Positions 38,906 through 49,764 of a stretch of 64,000 nt of DNA are shown piece by piece. The stretch covers positions 1 to 64,000 of the forward strand of contig CAINFC010000242.1 in NCBI GenBank assembly GCA_903847975.1, given 5' to 3'. The notes below the pieces were generated by a model. That model was not told where the DNA came from, ran no database searches, and saw nothing but the letters and a program-made list of their open reading frames with translations. The stretch comes from an uncultured Acidobacteriota bacterium (GTDB taxonomy: Bacteria > Acidobacteriota > UBA6911 > CAINFC01). Position 1 is the first letter of the stretch. The number at the start of each line of letters is the position of its first letter. A program made the position numbers and the translations under genes.

Positions 38906-40348
38906 TCATTTCCCGGAGCCGGCGATGGCGTAAAGTGCGGATGGAGTAGCGATATAAAGAGCGCCGTTGGCGGCCACGGGAGTGCTGTAAACCGCGGCTC
39001 CCATGGAATTTTCGGCGATCTTTTTCAATTCCTTTCCGGCTTCCAGAACGATCACGTCCCCGTCTTCATCCCCAAGGTATACCTTGCTGTCGGCCGCCAG
39101 CGGAGAACCCCAGACGGCACCCAGCATGTCGTAGCTCCAGTGCGGCTTACCGGTTTTGCGGTCCAGGCAGTAGAAAAATCCACTGAAATCGGAGATAAAG
39201 ACCAGCCCGTCGAGCACCGCTGCCGTGGAAAGGGAGCGGCGTATTTCATCGAAGCGCCAGACGCGGCCCGCTTCGGTGATATCTCCCCGCCCGGATCCGT
39301 CGATGCAGTACATGTGGCCGATTCCCTCCCCGTTTTCCGGGTCCTGCCCGATGGCCAGGAAGACCTGGCCGTCCTGAATCACGGGAGTGGCAATTCCGTC
39401 GTTGCGGGTTCGCGGCCAGACGGCATCTTTGGGATTCAGGTCGAAAGACCAAAGTTTTTCCCCGGTCAGGGCGTCGAATCCGTAGAGCCATCCGTCGCCT
39501 CCGGGGAAAAAGGCCTGCCACCGGCCGCCCGCCTGCCCGATGGAAGGTGAGGACCACTGTCCGTGAAGGATGCGGTTTCCCGGAGAACTGTCTTTCCAGG
39601 CCACCTTCCCGGTTTTTCTGTGGACCGCCAGGAAACTGGGGGCCTGGGGAGACGGGATGTTTCTGTGGCTTTCGTCGTGTCCGTTGGAGGTAATCAGAAA
39701 GACCAGATCGCCCCAGACCGCCGGCGAAGAGTTGGCCATATTATGCGGGAAAACGCCCAGCTCCTTCATCATGTCCAGATTCCAGACGATATCTCCGTCG
39801 ATCGGCCCGTGATATCTCTCGCCTTGAAAAGGGCCGTCGTTCCTCCCGTCGAGAAATCCTTCCGTATCCAGGCAAAGCAGCTCGCCCCGGTTGGTCACGT
39901 AATAAAGAAATTTCCCGTCCACCGCCGGAGAGGAGCACACTCCCTGCTCCGGCCAATCGTTGCCCTTTCCCGATTCCAGCTTGTCGGAAACCATCTGCCA
40001 GAGGAATTGGCCGTCCGACTCGCGGAAGCACATCAGAATCCCCTTGTCGCCGCGTATGTCGGGATTTCGCGGATTCCCGTTATTGGTACCCACAAATACC
40101 TTCCCGCCCGAGATGACCGGATTCCCGTAAGAGGTGGTCCCGAGCTTCGATTGCCATCGGATATTCCGTCCTGTTTTCCGGTCCCAGGAGGAGGGCAGTC
40201 CAGAAGCCTTGGAAACCATGTTCCGGGAAACCGTACCGCCCCACATAGGCCAGTCCTGGGCTTCCAGGGACCAAGCGGCCGACAGCAACAGCAGCAGGCG
40301 GAGCATCACCGGGTCGATTCGGCCACGGGAAAAGAGTTTCGAGAGCAT
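38906..40348 (-). CDS. Secreted PQQ-type beta-propeller protein
   Basis: This 480-residue protein has a signal-like hydrophobic stretch at about 15-30, then repeated blades with the pattern G-x-L-x-C-x-D-x-x-T-G-K of PQQ-binding-like propellers (for example LLCLDTEGFLDG, FYCLDRKTGKPHWSYD, LYGFDALTGEKLWSFD). No cofactor-binding cysteine ring or dehydrogenase domain is visible, so PQQ binding is not implied; such propellers often act as scaffolds or outer-membrane assembly-like proteins. The start codon could also be the ATG that puts residue 15 first. It is 45 bases downstream of a second propeller gene, so they form one operon. Confidence 0.8.
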   Translation of the reverse strand: MLSKLFSRGRIDPVMLRLLLLLSAAWSLEAQDWPMWGGTVSRNMVSKASGLPSSWDRKTGRNIRWQSKLGTTSYGNPVISGGKVFVGTNNGNPRNPDIRGDKGILMCFRESDGQFLWQMVSDKLESGKGNDWPEQGVCSSPAVDGKFLYYVTNRGELLCLDTEGFLDGRNDGPFQGERYHGPIDGDIVWNLDMMKELGVFPHNMANSSPAVWGDLVFLITSNGHDESHRNIPSPQAPSFLAVHRKTGKVAWKDSSPGNRILHGQWSSPSIGQAGGRWQAFFPGGDGWLYGFDALTGEKLWSFDLNPKDAVWPRTRNDGIATPVIQDGQVFLAIGQDPENGEGIGHMYCIDGSGRGDITEAGRVWRFDEIRRSLSTAAVLDGLVFISDFSGFFYCLDRKTGKPHWSYDMLGAVWGSPLAADSKVYLGDEDGDVIVLEAGKELKKIAENSMGAAVYSTPVAANGALYIATPSALYAIAGSGK

Positions 40349-40393: not shown

Positions 40394-41824
40394 CTAATTC
40401 TTTTTCTCCGCCGGCGCGGCGAAGCAATACAGGGTCCGGTAGGTGCGCACAAAAAGCCGGCCGTCGGCGATGGCCGGGGTTCCCTTGCACCCGTCCCCCA
40501 TATCGTTGACCTGCAGGATCTGCCATTCGGCCCCGGCCTGCAGGACCGCGACTTTCCCCTCCTCGCTGGCCGTGTAAATTTTTCCGTCCGCCGCCAGCGG
40601 CGATGCATAATACTCGCCCGGAGCACCCTGCAAACGGGCCTGCTTGCGAATCTCCCCGGTGCGCATATCGAAGGAGGTGAAAATGCCCCCCTCCTTCAGG
40701 GTGTACAGCACATCCCGATAGACCAGGGGCGAAGGGACATTGGGCAGCGTGCGCGCATTCTTCCACAGGAGATGCGACTCGGTCAGATCCCCCTTGCCTC
40801 CCAGGCGGTAGGCCCGCAGTCCGTTTTCCCCGAGCCGGCGCTCCTGGAACTGCTGCCAGTCGTGTTCCTCGAGGAAGCCGGAATTGTCGAGATCCAGATA
40901 TTCGTCGAAACGGTCCCGGGCCCGGGGATCGCTCAATTCCTCCTTGGAAAGCCTGCCGTCGCCGTTGCGGTCCATCTGACGGATGGCCTCCGCAAACGGC
41001 GGGACCGTTTCCTGGCTGCCGGGATCCGATTCCCCGGAGTAGGTGACAAAGAAAATTTCATTGCCGTAAATCACCGGGGTCGGTTTGATCTGCCAAGGCA
41101 GCCTGCGGATCCACCAAAGCTCCTCTCCGGTCCGGAGATCATAGCCGGACAGGCGGAAGGAGCCGGCCACCAGTACCTGCCTCACCCCCGCCGGATCCTG
41201 GTAGAGCACGGGTGTGGAATAGCCCCGCTGGGCATGCGGGCGCTCCTTGCGCCACAAAAGGCGACCGGTGCTTTTGTCGACCGCCAGCAGAAAGGATCCG
41301 GTGTCCTGGTCGACGTTCATCAGCAGTTTTTCATCTGCCAGAATGGGCGAGGCGCCGTGCCCGAACGGATTGTTGAAAGGACCGAGAGGTATGCGCCACA
41401 ATTCCTGGCCTGCGGCGCTGTAGGCCAGAAGCCCGAAATCCTGGAAGAAGACCCAGACGCTTTTTCCGTCGCTGACCGGACTGGCGGAGGCCGGTCCGTT
41501 CGACGGCCGCTCGATAACCTGTTTGCGCGGGCGGGGCGCCTCGTTTTTCCAGAGGATCTTTCCCGTGGCCTGGTCCAGGGCGAGTGTGATCAGCGAGTCC
41601 CCCTCAAAGCCGGTCAGATAAATCCGGCCGCCGGCCACCACAGGCGACGAGTTGCCCATCGGCACCGCTGTTTTCCAGACCACATTTTCAGAAGGGCCGA
41701 AAGCGGTGGGCAGTCCGGTGTCCTGCGCAACACCGCTGCTATTGGGACCGCGGAATTGCGGCCAGTCGGCCGCAGCCGGCCGGGCGGAGCAGAAGAGCAG
41801 AAAAATCGCAAAAATCATAGCCAT
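40394..41824 (-). CDS. Secreted PQQ-type propeller with EF-hand insert
   Basis: This 476-residue protein has a signal peptide (MAMIFAIFLLFCSARPAAA) and begins with DWPQFRGPNSSG, the usual start of these propellers in Planctomycetes and Acidobacteria. Blades recur (LALDQATGKILWKNE, LAVDKSTGRLLWRKE, GYDLRTGEELWWIRR). Around residues 285-330 an inserted pair of EF-hand-like loops, DRNGDGRLSKEE and DLDNSGFLEEHD, should bind calcium. It is the first gene of the pair with 38906-40348. Role: periplasmic binding or scaffold protein; the substrate is unknown. Confidence 0.82.
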   Translation of the reverse strand: MAMIFAIFLLFCSARPAAADWPQFRGPNSSGVAQDTGLPTAFGPSENVVWKTAVPMGNSSPVVAGGRIYLTGFEGDSLITLALDQATGKILWKNEAPRPRKQVIERPSNGPASASPVSDGKSVWVFFQDFGLLAYSAAGQELWRIPLGPFNNPFGHGASPILADEKLLMNVDQDTGSFLLAVDKSTGRLLWRKERPHAQRGYSTPVLYQDPAGVRQVLVAGSFRLSGYDLRTGEELWWIRRLPWQIKPTPVIYGNEIFFVTYSGESDPGSQETVPPFAEAIRQMDRNGDGRLSKEELSDPRARDRFDEYLDLDNSGFLEEHDWQQFQERRLGENGLRAYRLGGKGDLTESHLLWKNARTLPNVPSPLVYRDVLYTLKEGGIFTSFDMRTGEIRKQARLQGAPGEYYASPLAADGKIYTASEEGKVAVLQAGAEWQILQVNDMGDGCKGTPAIADGRLFVRTYRTLYCFAAPAEKKN

Positions 41825-41907: not shown

Positions 41908-41942
41908 TTGACTCCCATGTTAGGCTATGCTAACTTTGTTAG
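41908..41942. promoter_or_regulatory. DtxR-type operator and promoter region in front of the regulator
   Basis: TTGACT stands at 41908-41913, followed by TTAG-N6-CTAA (41920-41933), and a second, overlapping perfect palindrome, CTAAC-TTT-GTTAG (41930-41942). TTAG/CTAA half-sites are the core of known DtxR/IdeR boxes. They lie within 30 bases of the ATG at 41947, so they overlap the promoter and suggest autoregulation. Confidence 0.5.
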
Positions 41943-41946
41943 ATAT

Positions 41947-42738
41947 ATGGCAATCAATAGACATAGTTCTGCAAAAGCGGAACAGCTGAGTGCAAGTCTG
42001 GAAGATTATCTGGAAACGATTCTTCAACTGGTCCAGGAAAATAAGGTCGCCCGGGCGAAGGATATCTCCACGCAGATGCAAGTCAGAAAATCATCCGTTA
42101 CCAGCGCTCTGAAGACTCTATCGGAGAAAGGATTCATTCATTATACGCCTTATGGCTTCATCACCCTGACCGAATCGGGAAAAGCGATTGCCGAGGATGT
42201 ATATCGAAGGCATTCGACTCTAAAGGATTTTTTCATCAAGGTCTTGGCCATCGACGCCGAATTGGCCGACACCGGTGCCTGTCAAATGGAACATGCAATT
42301 CCACCCGCGATCCTGGATCGGTTCGTACAGTTTATTGAATTTGTGGACCTCTGCCCCCGAGGAAATATCCGATGGGTACAGGACTTTGGTTATTATTGCC
42401 GGCATGGACATCCGCAGCAGAATTGTATGCGCTGCGTTCAGATGACCGTTGATGAACTTGCCCAGGATCAAAGCAATTTCAACAACGGAGAAAAAGTGCT
42501 TTCCTTGACGGCCCTGAAGCCTGGACAAAAAGCCCAAGTCCGTTCTATCAGGGGCGAAAAAAAATTGGCCGAAAGGCTTATTAAAATGGAGGTAATGCCC
42601 GGAGCATTTATTACTCTCATCCATGTGGCCTCAAATGCAGACAGAATCGAAATTGCTGTTCGCGAAAGCCGTTTCATACTGACGAAGCAGGAAGCGGATC
42701 AGGTTCAGATCGTTTCCATCAGCAACCCCGGCGAATGA
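41947..42738 (+). CDS. DtxR-family iron-type metalloregulator
   Basis: This repressor of about 263 residues has an N-terminal winged helix (EDYLETILQLVQEN, then VRKSSVTSALKTL as recognition helix) and a metal-binding and dimer domain. A C-terminal FeoA-like SH3 domain starts near residue 180. The primary-site motif CQMEH (Cys112, Glu115, His116) equals the Cys102/Glu105/His106 set of DtxR, which suits Fe(II); manganese-type MntR has Glu at the Cys position. Three more cysteines (Cys151, Cys160, Cys163) in a C-x8-C-x-x-C cluster follow, which is unusual. The open frame begins with TTG at 41908, but ATG 41947 is preferred since the upstream part is operator DNA. The next gene is a haem-porin. 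Base composition is lower in GC than around it. Confidence 0.85.
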   Translation: MAINRHSSAKAEQLSASLEDYLETILQLVQENKVARAKDISTQMQVRKSSVTSALKTLSEKGFIHYTPYGFITLTESGKAIAEDVYRRHSTLKDFFIKVLAIDAELADTGACQMEHAIPPAILDRFVQFIEFVDLCPRGNIRWVQDFGYYCRHGHPQQNCMRCVQMTVDELAQDQSNFNNGEKVLSLTALKPGQKAQVRSIRGEKKLAERLIKMEVMPGAFITLIHVASNADRIEIAVRESRFILTKQEADQVQIVSISNPGE

Positions 42739-42765
42739 TATCCGGCAATCACCCCAGGTAACTCG

Positions 42766-42788
42766 GCGGCATCAGGTCGCTTTTTTTT
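42766..42788 (+). terminator. Weak candidate terminator after the regulator gene
   Basis: A 5-bp stem, GCGGC and GTCGC (one G-T pair), has a 5-base loop and is followed by eight T. The stem is short, so read-through is likely. Confidence 0.35.
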
Positions 42789-42800
42789 GGGCTCCAATAG

Positions 42801-42814
42801 TTAGATTGGTCTTA
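42801..42814 (+). promoter_or_regulatory. Candidate DtxR-type operator before the haem-porin gene
   Basis: TTAG-ATTGGT-CTTA differs by one base from the TTAG-N6-CTAA box in front of the regulator. It stands 72 bases before the porin start, in an AT-rich leader with several possible -10 words (TATATT near 42852). Confidence 0.4.
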
Positions 42815-42885
42815 CATAGTACATTGAGGCATATATTGTTCATATTAACTAATGCTTCCATGATTGAGAAAATGAAGGAGAAAAA

Positions 42886-44103
42886 ATGAAAAAAATACTA
42901 AATTTAAGCCGATTTAATGGAAAAAAGACCTGGGCCGGCTCGATCCTCGTGTTAGCCGTTCTCAGCATGTTAACTCTGTCGATCACTCCGGCTTATGCTA
43001 TCAAGGCCTGGGCGGCAAAACATAACATGACATGTAATGCCTGCCATGTGGGACCAGGGAGCGGGCCGTTGACACTGACCGGGCAGAATTTCCAGCGAAA
43101 CGGCTTCCGCATGACCGGCGAGGACAAGAGCACAAGCGACTGGGCCAAGCTGTTCAGTTTCAACGTCAAGCTCCGGGCCCACGATTCGAATGCCGCCGGA
43201 AGGAATGCCACCTTTGAGGCACATGCGGTGGAGCTTTTCAGCGGCGGAAATTTGTCGAAACATTTTTCCTATTTCACCGAATTGTATCTGTATGAAAACA
43301 CGGGAAGGACGACTTCTGCGGTCAACAGCGACCTGGGACGCGGCAAGCTGGCAGATGCGTACCTGATGTACAACTCCCATCCATCCAGGGAGATTTACAC
43401 CACAGTCCGCTTTGGACAGATCACGCCGGGGCTGCCCGACTCAGGCCCTCGTTTTTCCGAAACCCGCCCGTACATCATCAACAACTCAGCAGTATCGCCC
43501 AACACTTTCCGTCCCTTCCAGCGAAACTTCGGAGTGTCCATTGCCCAGCACTTAAAGTCTTTTCATGCCGAGTTTTCATTGGTTAACGGGACGGGATCTT
43601 CGCCGACCAACTCAATCGATACGAACGAGACCAAGGATTTTTATTTGGTACTCGACCAGGACCTCGGTCAAAGTACCAATATAGGTGCATTCGGGTACAA
43701 AGGTCGCGGAGTAATTATTCCGTCTTCCGGGTTCGCCTGGGAGAACCGGTTCCATCGCTATGGGGCCTTCGCGCAGATCTCAATGGGGCAACTCAGTTTC
43801 CTGGGGATGGTTAGCGGCGGTCGAGAACAACTAACCCCACAGGGCAGAAAAGCGAAAAATCTAGGTTTGTTGGGGGAGGCAGCCTTCATGGTCACGGATA
43901 AGCTGTCGCTGTTCGGACGATATGACTTTTTCGACCCGAATCAAGAGATGGCCAACGACCATTGGAGCGGCCCCATGGTCGGAGCGGGGTATGCATTTGC
44001 CGACAGCGGCCGGGTTACTTTTGAATACCACAAGCAGGGAAAATTTGTATCGACGGGAAACATGCCCTGGGAATACCGGGTGGAGGTTGCTTTTATGTTT
44101 TGA
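42886..44103 (+). CDS. Outer-membrane porin with one N-terminal c-type haem (Cyc2-like)
   Basis: This 405-residue protein has a Sec signal ending near AYA38. Right after it, CNACH (Cys50, Cys53, His54) forms a c-type haem site, followed by a short loop with GPLTLTGQNFQRNGFRM. The remaining 320 residues show alternating hydrophobic strands with many aromatic and Gly residues and end in VEVAFMF, a C-terminal Phe as used by outer-membrane barrels. The order of signal, single haem and barrel of about 400 residues matches fused cytochrome-porins such as Cyc2, which pass electrons from Fe(II) through the outer membrane. Homology to true Cyc2 cannot be shown here. GAAGGAG precedes the ATG. It follows an iron-type regulator by 147 bases, and both are AT-rich. 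Confidence 0.72.
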   Translation: MKKILNLSRFNGKKTWAGSILVLAVLSMLTLSITPAYAIKAWAAKHNMTCNACHVGPGSGPLTLTGQNFQRNGFRMTGEDKSTSDWAKLFSFNVKLRAHDSNAAGRNATFEAHAVELFSGGNLSKHFSYFTELYLYENTGRTTSAVNSDLGRGKLADAYLMYNSHPSREIYTTVRFGQITPGLPDSGPRFSETRPYIINNSAVSPNTFRPFQRNFGVSIAQHLKSFHAEFSLVNGTGSSPTNSIDTNETKDFYLVLDQDLGQSTNIGAFGYKGRGVIIPSSGFAWENRFHRYGAFAQISMGQLSFLGMVSGGREQLTPQGRKAKNLGLLGEAAFMVTDKLSLFGRYDFFDPNQEMANDHWSGPMVGAGYAFADSGRVTFEYHKQGKFVSTGNMPWEYRVEVAFMF

Positions 44104-44115
44104 ACGAGAGATTTC

Positions 44116-44814
44116 TCACTGGTTGTCCTCTCCTTTGTCCGGCTCCTTCAGCGGTATCAACAGCTCCGGGGAGTCGTTCCCGGGGCGGTTCACCAGGGTG
44201 CGTACGGGGTAGCATTTCATCCGCTCGGACGGAAACGGAACCAGTAGCCCCTGCAGCTCATCCGGGCAGCTTTCGGGTGACAGCCAGGCACGGAAAGATT
44301 CCGGCGCCAGGATCACCGGCATGCGGTGGTGAATCGGCTCCATCCGCTCGTTGGGGGATGTAGTGAGAATGGCGCAGGTTTCGATGTCGCTGCCATCGGG
44401 CGAATGCCACTGCTCCCAGAGCCCGGCAAAGGAGAGGGGCCGGCCATCGTCGGAAGTGATGAACCACGGCTGCTTGCTCTTCCCTTCCTTTTTCTGCCAC
44501 TCGTAAAAACCGCTGGCGGGAATAAGGCAGCGCCGGCGGCGGAACGCGGAGCGAAACGAAGGCTTTTCCGCAGCGGTTTCCGAACGCGCGTTGATCAGGC
44601 TGCCGCCGACGGATGGATCCTTGCTCCAGGAAGGGATCAGACCCCAGTGAACCCAGGCCGCCTGACGGGAACCGTCCGGAAGTTCCCGGACAATCAGCAC
44701 CGGCTGGGAAGGGGCGATGTTGTACCGGGGCGGAACCGAACCCGGTTCCACTTGGACGCGGTATAGCTGCGACAGCAGCTCTGCGGACAGAAAGCAGGTA
44801 AATCGACCGCACAT
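44116..44814 (-). CDS. yedK: SRAP domain abasic-site DNA shield protein
   Basis: This 232-residue protein is of the HMCES/YedK family. After removal of Met1, Cys2 (MCGRFT) becomes the residue that forms a thiazolidine link to abasic sites in single-stranded DNA, protecting them during replication. Other family marks are PRYNIAPSQ, NARSET, the GFYEW active-site strand and HHRMP. The frame is open upstream, but only ATG 44814 exposes the essential Cys2, so the start is secure. It is 12 bases from the convergent haem-porin gene. A promoter was not identified. Confidence 0.92.
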   Translation of the reverse strand: MCGRFTCFLSAELLSQLYRVQVEPGSVPPRYNIAPSQPVLIVRELPDGSRQAAWVHWGLIPSWSKDPSVGGSLINARSETAAEKPSFRSAFRRRRCLIPASGFYEWQKKEGKSKQPWFITSDDGRPLSFAGLWEQWHSPDGSDIETCAILTTSPNERMEPIHHRMPVILAPESFRAWLSPESCPDELQGLLVPFPSERMKCYPVRTLVNRPGNDSPELLIPLKEPDKGEDNQ

Positions 44815-44878
44815 TCGGCCCTCCGCTCTTAGTTTCCGGCCCGATGGACCCGAGGGAGAATGACGCACATCGCGAAGC

Positions 44879-45913
44879 TCATTTCTTCCCGCGACCCGCT
44901 TTGGTTTCGCGAAGCAGGAGGTGCTCGCCGGTGCGTATATCCAGCTTCCAGGGGACCGGCTCCGGCAGCCACATCCTTCCGCCGCCGATTTCCAGGGGCA
45001 TCCATAGGTATCGGGAGTCCCACTGCGTTTCCGGCTTCCAAACGTCCCCCATGAAAATGACCGTGGTGCTCCTGCTTCCAACGATCTTCAGCAGCATGCT
45101 GGATTGGGATCCGTAGGTGTTGGTTGACGGCGGAGCGATGTCCCGGAATTCGCTCCATGGCCCTTCCAGTCTTGTGGCCGTGGCATATTTGTTGGGATTG
45201 GGCTTCCAGCCGGTCAGCGCCGACCCCAGGACATAATAGAGGCCGTCGTAATGAACCAGCGCCCCTCCTTCGATCGGAGCCTTGATCAGGCACACGTCTT
45301 TCTCGACACTCAGATAGTCCGCGGAAAGCCGCGCGATATGAAATCCGTTGGGGCGGTCCTCGAAAATAAGGTAGGCGCTTCCGTCGTCGTCGATGAACTG
45401 GCCGATATCCCTGCTTTCCATGCCGAGAGGACGGAAGGAGCGGACGTAGCGGAACGGCCCCTCCGCCTTGTCGCTCAGGGCCACGCCGACCCGGGCGAAG
45501 CGGTACCCGCCCTCGCCCGGCCCTCTGGGTCCGTCCAGGTGCATGTACATGACAAACTTTCGGGTGCCGGCGTTGTAAAAAACCTTAGGGCGTTCCAGCA
45601 CCCAGGTATCCCCGATTCCTTCCGGATCGGACAGCTTGAGGGCGTCGCCCCGGAAGGTCCAGTTTACCAGGTCCTTCGAAGCGTAGCAGCTCACGTACCG
45701 GTATTCCGGATCGAGCCCCTGCCTTCTCTGCTCACCATACCAATAAAAAGTCGAGCCGATCTTCAGGATCCCTCCGCCGTGGGCCTGAATATGGTTGCCG
45801 GACTTGTCGAGCCAGACTTCTTTCGGCCGGAACACGTTCCGCTGGGCAAAGGAGGAGACGGATAGAAGAATCACGATTGCCGGTAAAAATATCTTTTGGG
45901 GTGTTTGTCGCAT
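44879..45913 (-). CDS. Secreted GH43-like glycosidase
   Basis: This protein of about 344 residues has a signal peptide (FLPAIVILLSVSSFA) and a five-bladed propeller pattern. Its opening, QAHGGGILKIGSTFYWYGE, is typical of a subgroup of glycoside hydrolase family 43. Likely acids include the Asp/Glu residues in DIGQFIDDDGSAYL and APIEGGALVHYDG. Members cleave arabinose, xylose or galactose residues. ATG 45913 is used; a longer form to 45976 would put 21 polar residues before the signal. It stands 64 bases upstream of the SRAP gene on the same strand. The exact substrate is not predictable. Confidence 0.8.
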   Translation of the reverse strand: MRQTPQKIFLPAIVILLSVSSFAQRNVFRPKEVWLDKSGNHIQAHGGGILKIGSTFYWYGEQRRQGLDPEYRYVSCYASKDLVNWTFRGDALKLSDPEGIGDTWVLERPKVFYNAGTRKFVMYMHLDGPRGPGEGGYRFARVGVALSDKAEGPFRYVRSFRPLGMESRDIGQFIDDDGSAYLIFEDRPNGFHIARLSADYLSVEKDVCLIKAPIEGGALVHYDGLYYVLGSALTGWKPNPNKYATATRLEGPWSEFRDIAPPSTNTYGSQSSMLLKIVGSRSTTVIFMGDVWKPETQWDSRYLWMPLEIGGGRMWLPEPVPWKLDIRTGEHLLLRETKAGRGKK

Positions 45914-47005: not shown

Positions 47006-47081
47006 TGGAGCGGGCAACGGGCCTCGAACCCGCGACCCCAAGCTTGGGAAGCTTGTACTCTACCAGCTGAGCTATGCCCGC
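47006..47081 (-). tRNA. tRNA-Gly(CCC), CCA encoded
   Basis: The 76-base minus-strand sequence folds as a full cloverleaf. The acceptor stem GCGGGCA pairs with TGCCCGC; the anticodon stem CAAGC/GCTTG encloses the loop TTCCCAA, so the anticodon is CCC (glycine, GGG codons). The T arm has GGTTCGA. The 3' CCA is encoded at 47006-47008. It lies between the SPAGR-repeat gene and nadB. Confidence 0.93.
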
Positions 47082-47204: not shown

Positions 47205-48767
47205 TCAGTCGATCCGGTAGTGGCAGCCGTGGCTCTGCCTGGCTTCCATGGCAGCCAGGAGAACCACCAGGGCGGTCTGGATCCCGTTTCGCAAACCGAC
47301 GAGGGAATCGCTGATTTCCGATCGGACGTAAAAACGCCCTATTTCCAGGTGCAGCTCGCGCAGGATTTCATGCGCCCTCTCCAGGCGCTTCTTGCTGCGC
47401 ACCAGTCCCACGTAGTTCCACATGGTGTGGCGAATGGTCAACCAGTCCTGAGCGATCCAGGCCGGATCCACCGGCTCCTTTTCGTAGTTCCAGGGGGAAA
47501 TTTCCGGCATGTAATACGCCGCTCCACGGAGGATGGATTCCGCGGCATCCTCTCCTGCCCGGACGCCCCAAACCAGACACTCCAGAAGCGAGGTGCTGGC
47601 CAGCCGGTTGGCCCCGTGGACGCCGGTGCAGGAAACCTCACCCGCGGCCCGCAGCCGCTCCATGCTGGTCCGGCCCCAAAGGTCCACGGCCACGCCGCCG
47701 CAGCTGTAGTGTGCGGCCGGGACGACCGGGATGGGCTGCCGGGTAATATCGATTCCCGCGGCCAGGCACTGATCGTGGATTCTGGGAAATCGACCCCGGA
47801 CCCACTCCGCCGGACGATGGGAAATATCCAGGTAGGCGCACGGCGCGCCGCTTTCCAGCATCATGTGGTGAATCCCGCGGGCCACGATATCCCTCGGAGC
47901 CAGGGATCCCGCCCGGTGGAAGCGGGTCATGAAATCCGCTCCGTGGGAATCCAAAAGCCTGGCCCCCTCTCCCCGCATGGATTCGCTAATCAGGAAGCGA
48001 TCCCCCTCGTGGTACAGAGTGGTGGGATGAAACTGCACGAACTGCAGATTGATGCACCGGGCTCCGGCCCGATACGCCATGGCGATCCCATCGCCGCGCG
48101 CCGAGATCGGGTTGCTGGTATGCAGATAGATCCTTCCCAGTCCTCCGGTGGCCAGAATGGTTTCCCTGGCCATCACCGTCTTCACTTCGCCGCTTTTCTG
48201 ATCCAGGATATAGGCACCGACGCAGGTCGGACGGCTGTAAATGTCAACCGGATTCTGCGAGTGGTGCGAGAGAGAGAGCAGGTCCACCGCGGTGTGGCCG
48301 GTCAGCACGGAGATGTTCGGCTCCCGGCGCAGGGCCGCGGCGATCGCCGTTTCGATGGAACGGCCGGTGGCGTCCTTGGCGTGGATGATGCGGGCAACGG
48401 AATGAGCCGCTTCCGAAGTCAGGTCGAGCGCGCCGGAAAGTTCCGGCCTTCGGTCGAAATCGACGCCAATATCCTCGATCAGCACCTCCTGGACCAGGCG
48501 CGGCCCCTCCTGCGCCAATACGGCAACCGCGGCCGGGTCGCACATCCCGGAACCGGCTGCCAGGATATCCCGTCCCAGCTGCTCCGGGGAATCCTCTTTG
48601 CCGCGGAAAATGATCCCGCCCTGGGCGTACATGGTGTTGCTTTCCTCCAGCACCTCTTCCTTGCTCAGGACGGTCACCGAGACCCCGCGGCGAGCCGCAC
48701 GGATCGCTGCAGCACACCCCGCCAGACCGCTGCCGATCACCAGGACATCCGTAAAAATAGCGGACAT
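47205..48767 (-). CDS. nadB: L-aspartate oxidase
   Basis: This 520-residue flavoenzyme oxidises L-aspartate to iminoaspartate, the first step of NAD synthesis. The N-terminal FAD motif VLVIGSGLAGCAAA, the SNTMYAQGGI segment, and the substrate-binding and catalytic region HPTTLYHEG and RGEGARLLDS match the family. ATG 48767 gives the usual NadB start; the frame upstream is not needed. It follows nadC by 43 bases on the same strand, so the two form an operon (nadA is not in the window). The C-terminal helical domain is present and of normal length. Confidence 0.95.
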   Translation of the reverse strand: MSAIFTDVLVIGSGLAGCAAAIRAARRGVSVTVLSKEEVLEESNTMYAQGGIIFRGKEDSPEQLGRDILAAGSGMCDPAAVAVLAQEGPRLVQEVLIEDIGVDFDRRPELSGALDLTSEAAHSVARIIHAKDATGRSIETAIAAALRREPNISVLTGHTAVDLLSLSHHSQNPVDIYSRPTCVGAYILDQKSGEVKTVMARETILATGGLGRIYLHTSNPISARGDGIAMAYRAGARCINLQFVQFHPTTLYHEGDRFLISESMRGEGARLLDSHGADFMTRFHRAGSLAPRDIVARGIHHMMLESGAPCAYLDISHRPAEWVRGRFPRIHDQCLAAGIDITRQPIPVVPAAHYSCGGVAVDLWGRTSMERLRAAGEVSCTGVHGANRLASTSLLECLVWGVRAGEDAAESILRGAAYYMPEISPWNYEKEPVDPAWIAQDWLTIRHTMWNYVGLVRSKKRLERAHEILRELHLEIGRFYVRSEISDSLVGLRNGIQTALVVLLAAMEARQSHGCHYRID

Positions 48768-48810
48768 AATGTATTTTGCCTTTCTTTGCCAGCAGTAATG
48801 GAGAGAGACC

Positions 48811-49764
48811 TCAGAGTTCAAAATCCAGGGATATATCGACTGCCCGGGCGCTGTGCGTGAGAGCCCCGACCGATATCCCATCCACTCCGGTCCGGGCATA
48901 CTCTGCCATCTGCTCCAAGCGGATTCCTCCGGAGGCTTCCAGCCAGCACCCGGAATGGACCGGATGGCGGCGCACCATCCCGACTGCGGCGGAAATCATC
49001 TCCGGAGACATGTTGTCCAGCAGGACTGCCTCCACACCCTCGTCCAAAGCCACCGCCAGCTGCTCCAGGGAATCCACTTCGACCTCCACCGGCAGCTTCC
49101 CTGCCTGCCGAGCCTGCCGCAAGGCGTTGCGGATTCCGCCGCAGGCCGCCAGGTGGTTATCTTTGATCAGCACCGCGTCGAAAAGACCGACACGATGATT
49201 GCGCCCCCCGCCGCAAACCACCGCATACTTTTCCAGGTGGCGCAAGCCGGGAGTGGTTTTCCGGGTGTCCAGCACAGCGACCGGCCCGCATTCCCGGGCG
49301 ATTTCCACAAAGCGGCGGGTCAGGGTGGCAATTCCGGAAAGACGCTGCAGCAGGTTCAGCGCCACCCTCTCCGCCGACAAAAGGGACCGGGCCCTGCCGG
49401 CAACCCGGGCCAGCGAATCTCCCTTGGAGGCATCGCCCCCCTCCGCCGTGAGCACTTCCATGCGGACCGCAGGATCCAGCTGCCGGAAGACCATCTCGAC
49501 GACCGGCAAGCCGCAAACTACCAGGTCTTCCCGGGCCACAAAGTGCCCGGCTGCCGGGAGCGGTTCGGGGACTACAATGTTGGTAGTTACATCCCCCGGG
49601 CCGATATCCTCTTCCAGGAAGCGCCGCACCAAGTCCCGGACGCAGTCCGCATCCATCCGCGGTTCTCCCGACGTCCGGGTCAGCGGCAGGGGACAGCGAA
49701 GCAGCGGAAACCGCTCCCTGACCTCTTCGCCCAACAAGATTTCTTCCGACAGATCCACGCCCAT
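48811..49764 (-). CDS. nadC: Nicotinate-nucleotide pyrophosphorylase (carboxylating)
   Basis: This 317-residue enzyme turns quinolinate and PRPP into nicotinate mononucleotide. Family motifs include DIGPGDVTT, LDTRKTTPGLR, KYAVVCGGGRNHR and the KDNHL active-site lysine, with EVEVDSLEQ and LLDNMSPEM later. It is about 30 residues longer than usual at the N-terminus. The start at 49764 is chosen because GGGAGG precedes it, but an internal Met about 36 residues in would give the standard length. It is upstream of nadB in the same operon. Confidence 0.94.
   Translation of the reverse strand: MGVDLSEEILLGEEVRERFPLLRCPLPLTRTSGEPRMDADCVRDLVRRFLEEDIGPGDVTTNIVVPEPLPAAGHFVAREDLVVCGLPVVEMVFRQLDPAVRMEVLTAEGGDASKGDSLARVAGRARSLLSAERVALNLLQRLSGIATLTRRFVEIARECGPVAVLDTRKTTPGLRHLEKYAVVCGGGRNHRVGLFDAVLIKDNHLAACGGIRNALRQARQAGKLPVEVEVDSLEQLAVALDEGVEAVLLDNMSPEMISAAVGMVRRHPVHSGCWLEASGGIRLEQMAEYARTGVDGISVGALTHSARAVDISLDFEL

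What the first reader, a model, noticed from the sequence alone, without database searches (positions are those of the whole stretch)
41908..42814. DtxR boxes in front of both the regulator and the haem-porin gene
TTAG-N6-CTAA (41920-41933), CTAAC-N3-GTTAG (41930-41942) and TTAG-N6-CTTA (42801-42814) share the half-sites of known DtxR/IdeR operators. The regulator has the iron-type site Cys112-x-x-Glu115-His116. Together they suggest a self-controlled iron switch for the haem-porin. The first box would cover the regulator's own promoter only 14-30 bases before its start codon.
Basis: partly seen in the sequence, partly recalled or inferred. Interest (0 to 1): 0.6.

Follow-up and report, generated by a model that had tools for sequence, protein, structure and literature searches.

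The report
Metal-sensing switch beside haem-porin gene
A bacterial metal-sensing repressor that usually sits in front of an iron-uptake pump here sits next to an outer-membrane haem-porin gene instead, and both genes carry what looks like its DNA docking site, suggesting that cell metal level may gate this electron channel.

Summary
The first box (41920-41933) is almost certainly real: TTAG-N6-CTAA stands exactly in front of 18 of 36 related DtxR-type regulator genes, usually on their promoter. A 22-bp matrix built from relatives only ranks this box 1st and the porin box (42801-42814) 2nd in the 64-kb window. An extended box with at most one mismatch occurs at 12 places in 8.13 Mb; two are these. 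The middle word, CTAAC-N3-GTTAG, is best read as the right half of box 1 plus the left half of a second slot 19 bp on, a spacing that recurs in relatives. The regulator (DtxR + FeoA) falls in a clade whose other five members all precede feoB; here a single-haem, 16-strand Cyc2-like cytochrome-porin stands there instead. The genome gave no Fur hit. The metal site is mixed: Cys112 as in DtxR, Asp20/Glu23 as in MntR, so iron specificity is not shown. The porin box is weaker: no homologue elsewhere has one, and its regulation is inferred. New variant of a known kind.

The parts
41908..41936 (+). Likely core promoter of the regulator: TTGACT (41908-41913), 17 nt, TAACTT (41931-41936)
   Evidence: Read and scored (3 of 6 in the second hexamer). 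Relatives' regulator genes carry TTGACA-N17 promoters at the same place. Inference.
41920..41933 (.). Operator box 1, TTAGGCTATGCTAA (extended GTTAGGCTATGCTAAC 41919-41934), in the spacer and first bases of the -10
   Evidence: Rank 1 in window by relatives-only matrix, 25.96 bits; 1 of 4 exact places in the genome; exact word in front of 18 of 36 relatives.
41939..41952 (.). Degenerate second operator slot, TTAGATATATGGCA, 19 bp after box 1, only the left half intact; overlaps the start codon
   Evidence: Scores 2.6. 19 bp is the commonest spacing between best and neighbouring box in relatives.
41947..42738 (+). Regulator gene, 263 aa: DtxR DNA-binding + DtxR metal/dimerisation + FeoA domains; D20, E23, H89, C112, E115, H116; no ribosome-binding site seen, near-leaderless if the promoter is right
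   Evidence: Pfam PF01325, PF02742, PF04023; alignment.
42765..42789 (+). Weak terminator-like hairpin with T run after the regulator
   Evidence: six such sites found in the region against 8.6 in shuffles, so not significant by itself.
42801..42814 (.). Operator box 2, TTAGATTGGTCTTA, in front of the porin
   Evidence: Rank 2 in window, 17.19 bits; 1 of 12 places at most one mismatch from the extended box; rank 3 without flanks.
42886..44103 (+). Single-haem cytochrome-porin (405 aa): signal-peptide-like N-terminus, CNACH at 50-54, predicted 16-strand barrel, C-terminal Phe
   Evidence: Sequence; no Pfam or NCBIfam family; AlphaFold2 16 strands, mean pLDDT 64.5; best PDB folds are porins, with OprP and OprO at ranks 22 and 27.

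Best explanation
A metal-dependent, self-repressing DtxR/MntR-type switch. Metal-loaded regulator dimers bind TTAG-N6-CTAA over the regulator's -35/-10 region and block its own transcription, and bind a weaker copy about 70-85 bp before the porin start, so that the cytochrome-porin is controlled by the same cytosolic Fe(II)/Mn(II) level. The regulator shares ancestry with regulators that stand in front of feoB; in this genome its neighbour is an outer-membrane cytochrome-porin. Shown by sequence: boxes, their conservation at relatives' regulator genes, their rarity, the domain make-up, the feoB-linked relatives. Inferred: binding, the metal, repression rather than activation at the porin, and electron transfer by the porin.
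For: Exact box in 18 of 36 relatives' upstream regions; the best box falls in two promoter slots, starting 8-12 or 27-30 nt after the first base of the -35, about 19 bp apart (17 of 24 rows with a box of 14 bits or more, window included; read). Matrix from relatives ranks both boxes 1 and 2 in the window. Two of 12 near-consensus places in 8.13 Mb lie 0.9 kb apart around this gene. Regulator clade of 6 (support 94/95), other five feoB-linked; 21 of 36 relatives have feoB downstream. No Fur in the genome at 99% completeness, the control search finding Fur in 13 of 14 genomes. The published DtxR operator contains TTAG-N6-CTAA twice (PMC7762939, passages).
Against: The five nearest regulators have degenerate boxes: 0 of 5 exact, 3 of 5 with 7 of 8 positions. 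The own-genome paralogue next to feoB has no box (6 of 8). No porin homologue elsewhere has a box above 10.3 bits (33 loci) or, by eye, a DtxR gene beside it, so box 2 rests on this genome alone. Core-only scoring puts box 2 third. Two other genome places score higher than box 2 (C81 22.27, C92 21.47) with no metal gene next to them, so sites of that strength do occur elsewhere without evident meaning.
Confidence: 0.65

Rival explanations
1. Only the regulator is self-controlled; the porin box is a chance AT-rich match and the porin is expressed otherwise or by read-through.
For: Box 2 has one mismatch, is third by core-only score, is unmatched in homologues, and local composition gives such a score 0.004 times per gap; the hairpin between the genes is weak.
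Against: Second of 64 kb, 1 of 12 places in the genome and next to the regulator.
Confidence: 0.25
2. It is a manganese switch of the MntR/PgMntR type: Mn(II) is the co-repressor and Fe(II) weakens binding. (Compatible with the best explanation; it concerns the metal.)
For: D20 and E23 match MntR D8 and E11; the D/C/E/H set with FeoA is that of PgMntR, in which Mn(II) raised and Fe(II) lowered DNA binding (PMC4805248, abstract and two sections). NCBIfam best scores are MntR models, below cut-off; best PDB matches are MntR.
Against: Relatives sit by feoB, mostly an Fe(II) transporter; Cys112 is the DtxR residue. FeoB may carry Mn(II), as in P. gingivalis, so this is not decisive.
Confidence: 0.4
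3. The regulator activates the porin when metal is plentiful (box 2 near -36), instead of repressing it.
For: If TATATT at 42832-42837 is the -10, box 2 is centred near -36 and no good -35 is seen (read), a place used by activators.
Against: The porin promoter is not known; box 1 geometry is plainly that of a repressor.
Confidence: 0.2
4. Box 1 serves the divergent beta-propeller gene (start 41824) as well as, or instead of, the regulator.
For: It lies in the shared 122-bp gap, 95 bp from that start.
Against: In relatives the box goes with the regulator gene's own promoter, whatever lies upstream.
Confidence: 0.1

Closest known systems
DtxR/IdeR iron repressors and their 19-bp operator
   Same: DNA-binding and metal/dimerisation domains; Cys-x-x-Glu-His; the 19-bp DtxR consensus contains TTAG-N6-CTAA twice, 5 bp apart (consensus seen in PMC7762939).
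   Different: Asp20 in place of Met10; one complete box, second slot 19 bp away instead of 5 bp; a FeoA domain at the C-terminus; host with an outer membrane.
PgMntR of Porphyromonas gingivalis (PMC4805248)
   Same: DtxR core, FeoA at the C-terminus, mixed D/C/E/H metal site, relatives beside FeoB.
   Different: PgMntR has two FeoA domains and controls a FeoB-type Mn transporter; here one FeoA and a cytochrome-porin.
Cyc2 fused cytochrome-porin, outer-membrane iron oxidase (PMC8406198)
   Same: One CxxCH near the N-terminus, predicted 16-strand porin, about 400 aa; homologous to motif-bearing members (L039, E 2.4e-9).
   Different: The AxPxFAR[QK][TY] motif reads AIKAWAAKH; sister sequences have forms such as AIPAWSRQT.
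Fur-controlled psp porins and genX cytochrome of Geobacter/Desulfuromonas (PMC545781, passages)
   Same: Porins and a cytochrome predicted under an iron regulator, some beside feoAB.
   Different: Fur and a different box; cytochrome and porin are separate genes there.

Membership tests
DtxR/MntR family regulator | DtxR N-terminal and metal/dimerisation domains over Pfam cut-offs | tested here: met
   57.8 bits (cut-off 26) and 69.5 bits (cut-off 27).
DtxR/IdeR (iron-specific branch) | Primary site Met10, Cys102, Glu105, His106 | tested here: not met
   C112, E115, H116 present but Asp20 at the Met10 place (residue lists as quoted in PMC4805248; equivalence of D20 placed by me from the EDY motif). 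NCBIfam DtxR model 41.2 against cut-off 290.
MntR (manganese branch) | Asp8, Glu99, Glu102, His103 (B. subtilis) | tested here: not met
   Asp20, Glu115, His116 present, but Cys112 at the Glu99 place; NCBIfam MntR 85.9 against cut-off 153.
DtxR-type operator | TTAG-N6-CTAA dimer unit | tested here: met
   Box 1 exact, box 2 one mismatch.
DtxR-type operator | Two units overlapping with 5-bp offset (19-bp TTAGGTTAGCCTAACCTAA) | tested here: not met
   No match within 3 mismatches in the window.
Cyc2 | AxPxFAR[QK][TY] before CxxCH | tested here: not met
   AIKAWAAKH before CNACH (motif from PMC8406198).
Cyc2 | One haem site fused to a 16-strand porin | tested here: met
   One CxxCH; 16 strands in a moderate-confidence model, pLDDT 64.5; porin folds in PDB.
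Cyc2 | Oxidises Fe(II) | not testable with these tools
   Needs expression and assay.
Self-repressing metal switch | Metal-dependent binding to both boxes | not testable with these tools
   Needs gel shift or footprint.

The most novel reading that the evidence does not exclude
A ferrous-iron-uptake repressor has been rewired to gate an outer-membrane electron conduit: in a Fur-less bacterium the cytosolic Fe(II)/Mn(II) level decides whether a Cyc2-like cytochrome-porin is made, coupling metal homeostasis to extracellular electron transfer or Fe(II) oxidation, with feoB replaced by the conduit gene behind the regulator.
Probability: 0.3. Interest if true: 0.65.

Novelty: new variant of a known kind. 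Interest (0 to 1): 0.45.

Why it matters
How bacteria decide when to build outer-membrane cytochrome-porins of the Cyc2 type is little known (my own view of the field). A linked regulator with a box before both genes gives a small system, ready for a gel shift, that would show whether a homeostatic metal sensor controls such a conduit. It also gives a usable operator matrix (TTAG-N6-CTAA, two slots 19 bp apart) for the DtxR-type regulators of this phylum.

Tried and rejected
Looked for the 19-bp DtxR operator with up to 3 mismatches: none in the window. Looked for boxes at the own genome's two feoB loci: none (best -2.18 and 5.29), so no wider feo regulon was found. The other near-consensus places in the genome (C36, C81, C92, C77, C6, C38, C46, C208, C226, C252) show no metal transporter beside them by eye; C81 precedes a gene with a TrbI-like match below cut-off. 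Box in front of porin homologues elsewhere: none above 10.3 bits in 33 loci (32 distinct; L046 and L047 dropped because the script did not find their haem motif). DtxR beside porin homologues: none seen by eye (flanks mostly about 1.5 kb, up to 4 kb; not every homologue was looked at: L071-L077 were not). Genomes with both proteins (G053, G063, G104, besides the own genome) have them on different contigs. RNA element: none but a tRNA-Gly. Solved Cyc2-like structure: none (best E 0.023). In one search, L027-L029 were dropped (no start motif found) and L003 was not entered. Papers: a search for Cyc2 with DtxR gave 3 papers; one (PMC7005843) was read in passages and names both only as search models and hits; the other two were seen in the listing only. 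Other searches that could have shown a DtxR-controlled cytochrome-porin; nothing such in the titles or abstract starts listed.

Full report
What is there. The window lies in an 8.13-Mb draft genome of 326 contigs, 99% complete. The phylum is probably Acidobacteriota: a genome listed as same phylum (G042) has a contig that matches JACPPM010000031.1, titled Acidobacteria bacterium. The regulator gene (41947-42738) encodes a DtxR N-terminal domain, a DtxR metal/dimerisation domain and a FeoA domain, all over the Pfam cut-offs. After a 147-bp gap of 39% G+C comes a 405-residue protein with a signal-peptide-like N-terminus, one CNACH and no Pfam or NCBIfam family. It is single-copy in the genome.

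The words are exact. All three lie at the given coordinates. TTAG-N6-CTAA occurs once in the window, 0.19 expected.

Comparative test of box 1. Of 36 related regulator loci (own paralogue included, window excluded; three further fetched loci dropped because the script found no start motif), 18 have the exact word in the 230 nt before the conserved Glu-Asp-Tyr codon, each with shuffle p of at most 0.02. In many it sits on a TTGACA-N17 promoter as in the window. Measured from the first base of the -35, the best box starts 8-12 nt or 27-30 nt downstream in 17 of the 24 rows that have a box of 14 bits or more, window included (read). The two slots are about 19 bp apart, and 19 bp is also the commonest distance between the best box and its best neighbour (10 of 24 rows, window included; some of those neighbours score poorly). 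The window has a full box in the first slot and only a left half-site (41939) in the second. Result against: the five regulators nearest to the window's have no exact box; three of five match 7 of 8 positions.

Test of box 2. I built a 22-bp symmetrical matrix from 17 sites of relatives, none from the window. It ranks 41920 first (25.96 bits) and 42801 second (17.19 bits); the third is 7.45. Leaving out any training site leaves both ranks (17 of 17), and larger pseudocounts do too; with flanks ignored, 42801 is third behind 52704. No score of 17.19 arose in 3.84 Mb of window-like random sequence, but in random sequence of the local AT-rich composition it arises 0.004 times per 147 bp. In the genome, the exact word with permissive flanks is at 4 places and an AT-flanked form with up to one mismatch at 12 places, two of which are these. 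Two others score above box 2 (22.27 and 21.47) with nothing metal-related beside them. So box 2 is probably real, but rests on one genome: none of 33 homologous porin loci has a box above 10.3 bits, and none of those looked at showed a DtxR gene beside it by eye.

What the regulator is. A tree of 37 regulators puts the window's one in a clade of six (support 94/95) whose other five all have feoB downstream; over all relatives 21 of 36 have feoB downstream, 14 do not, 1 ends at a contig edge (feoB recognised by its GTP-binding motif). Fur was not found in this genome, while the same search found it in 13 of 14 control genomes. The genome has two feoB loci elsewhere, each with a more distant DtxR-type gene beside it, without this box. 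The metal ligands are D20, E23, H89, C112, E115, H116. That is Cys as in DtxR with Asp as in MntR, the set described for PgMntR, which binds both metals and in which Mn(II) strengthened and Fe(II) weakened DNA binding (PMC4805248, abstract and sections 19 and 25).

What the porin is. It is homologous to cytochrome-porins that carry the Cyc2 motif (for example L039, E 2.4e-9; motif line). A model from nine sequences has 16 strands after a helical N-terminus, mean pLDDT 64.5, and its PDB matches are porins, with OprP and OprO at ranks 22 and 27. The Cyc2 motif AxPxFAR[QK][TY] (PMC8406198, passages) is not met: AIKAWAAKH. Some homologues lie beside NapC/NrfD-type respiratory genes (L089). Electron transfer across the outer membrane is the likely role; substrate and direction are open.

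How it most likely works. Metal-loaded dimers bind box 1 inside the core promoter and shut the regulator gene; the same dimers bind box 2 before the porin. The dimer unit is that of DtxR: the published 19-bp consensus TTAGGTTAGCCTAACCTAA (PMC7762939, passages) contains TTAG-N6-CTAA twice, offset by 5 bp; in this group a second unit is offset by 19 bp instead. If TAACTT is the -10, transcription starts about four bases before ATG 41947 with no ribosome-binding site seen, so the message may be leaderless (inference). Whether box 2 represses or activates cannot be told.

Known and new. Porins and a cytochrome under Fur, some next to feoAB, were predicted in Geobacter and Desulfuromonas (PMC545781, passages), so iron control of porins is not new. 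A FeoA-fused DtxR regulator linked by its own box to a Cyc2-like cytochrome-porin was not met, which cover an open-licence library only. I file it as a new variant of a known kind.

Noticed in passing
40394-41824 and 38906-40348 (-): Two adjacent PQQ/BamB-like beta-propeller genes, the first with an EF-hand stretch in the middle, divergent from the regulator across the gap that holds box 1.
   Followed up: partly
Regulator residues about 134-164 (42346-42438): Between the DtxR and FeoA domains lies CPRG...YCRHGHPQQNCMRC, a Cys/His-rich linker partly kept in the feoB-linked clade; it might bind a further metal or cluster.
   Followed up: no
G000:C77:114828 and 115006 (L110, L119): Two one-mismatch boxes 178 bp apart (13.99 and 15.49 bits) in a gene that by eye resembles a DNA methylase (name recalled); probably an AT-rich island.
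   Followed up: partly
L088, L089 (bacterium MAG; Candidatus Lindowbacteria): Cyc2-like porins with almost the same N-terminus in two records; in L089 the gene follows an NrfD protein and a NapC-type multihaem cytochrome, which suggests a respiratory conduit.
   Followed up: partly
47205-48899 and 48811-49764 (-), 47006-47081 (-): FAD-binding protein resembling L-aspartate oxidase next to quinolinate phosphoribosyltransferase (NAD synthesis), with a tRNA-Gly(CCC) beside them (the oxidase name is recalled).
   Followed up: no
44116-44889 (-): SRAP (SOS response associated peptidase) gene directly after and convergent with the porin.
   Followed up: no
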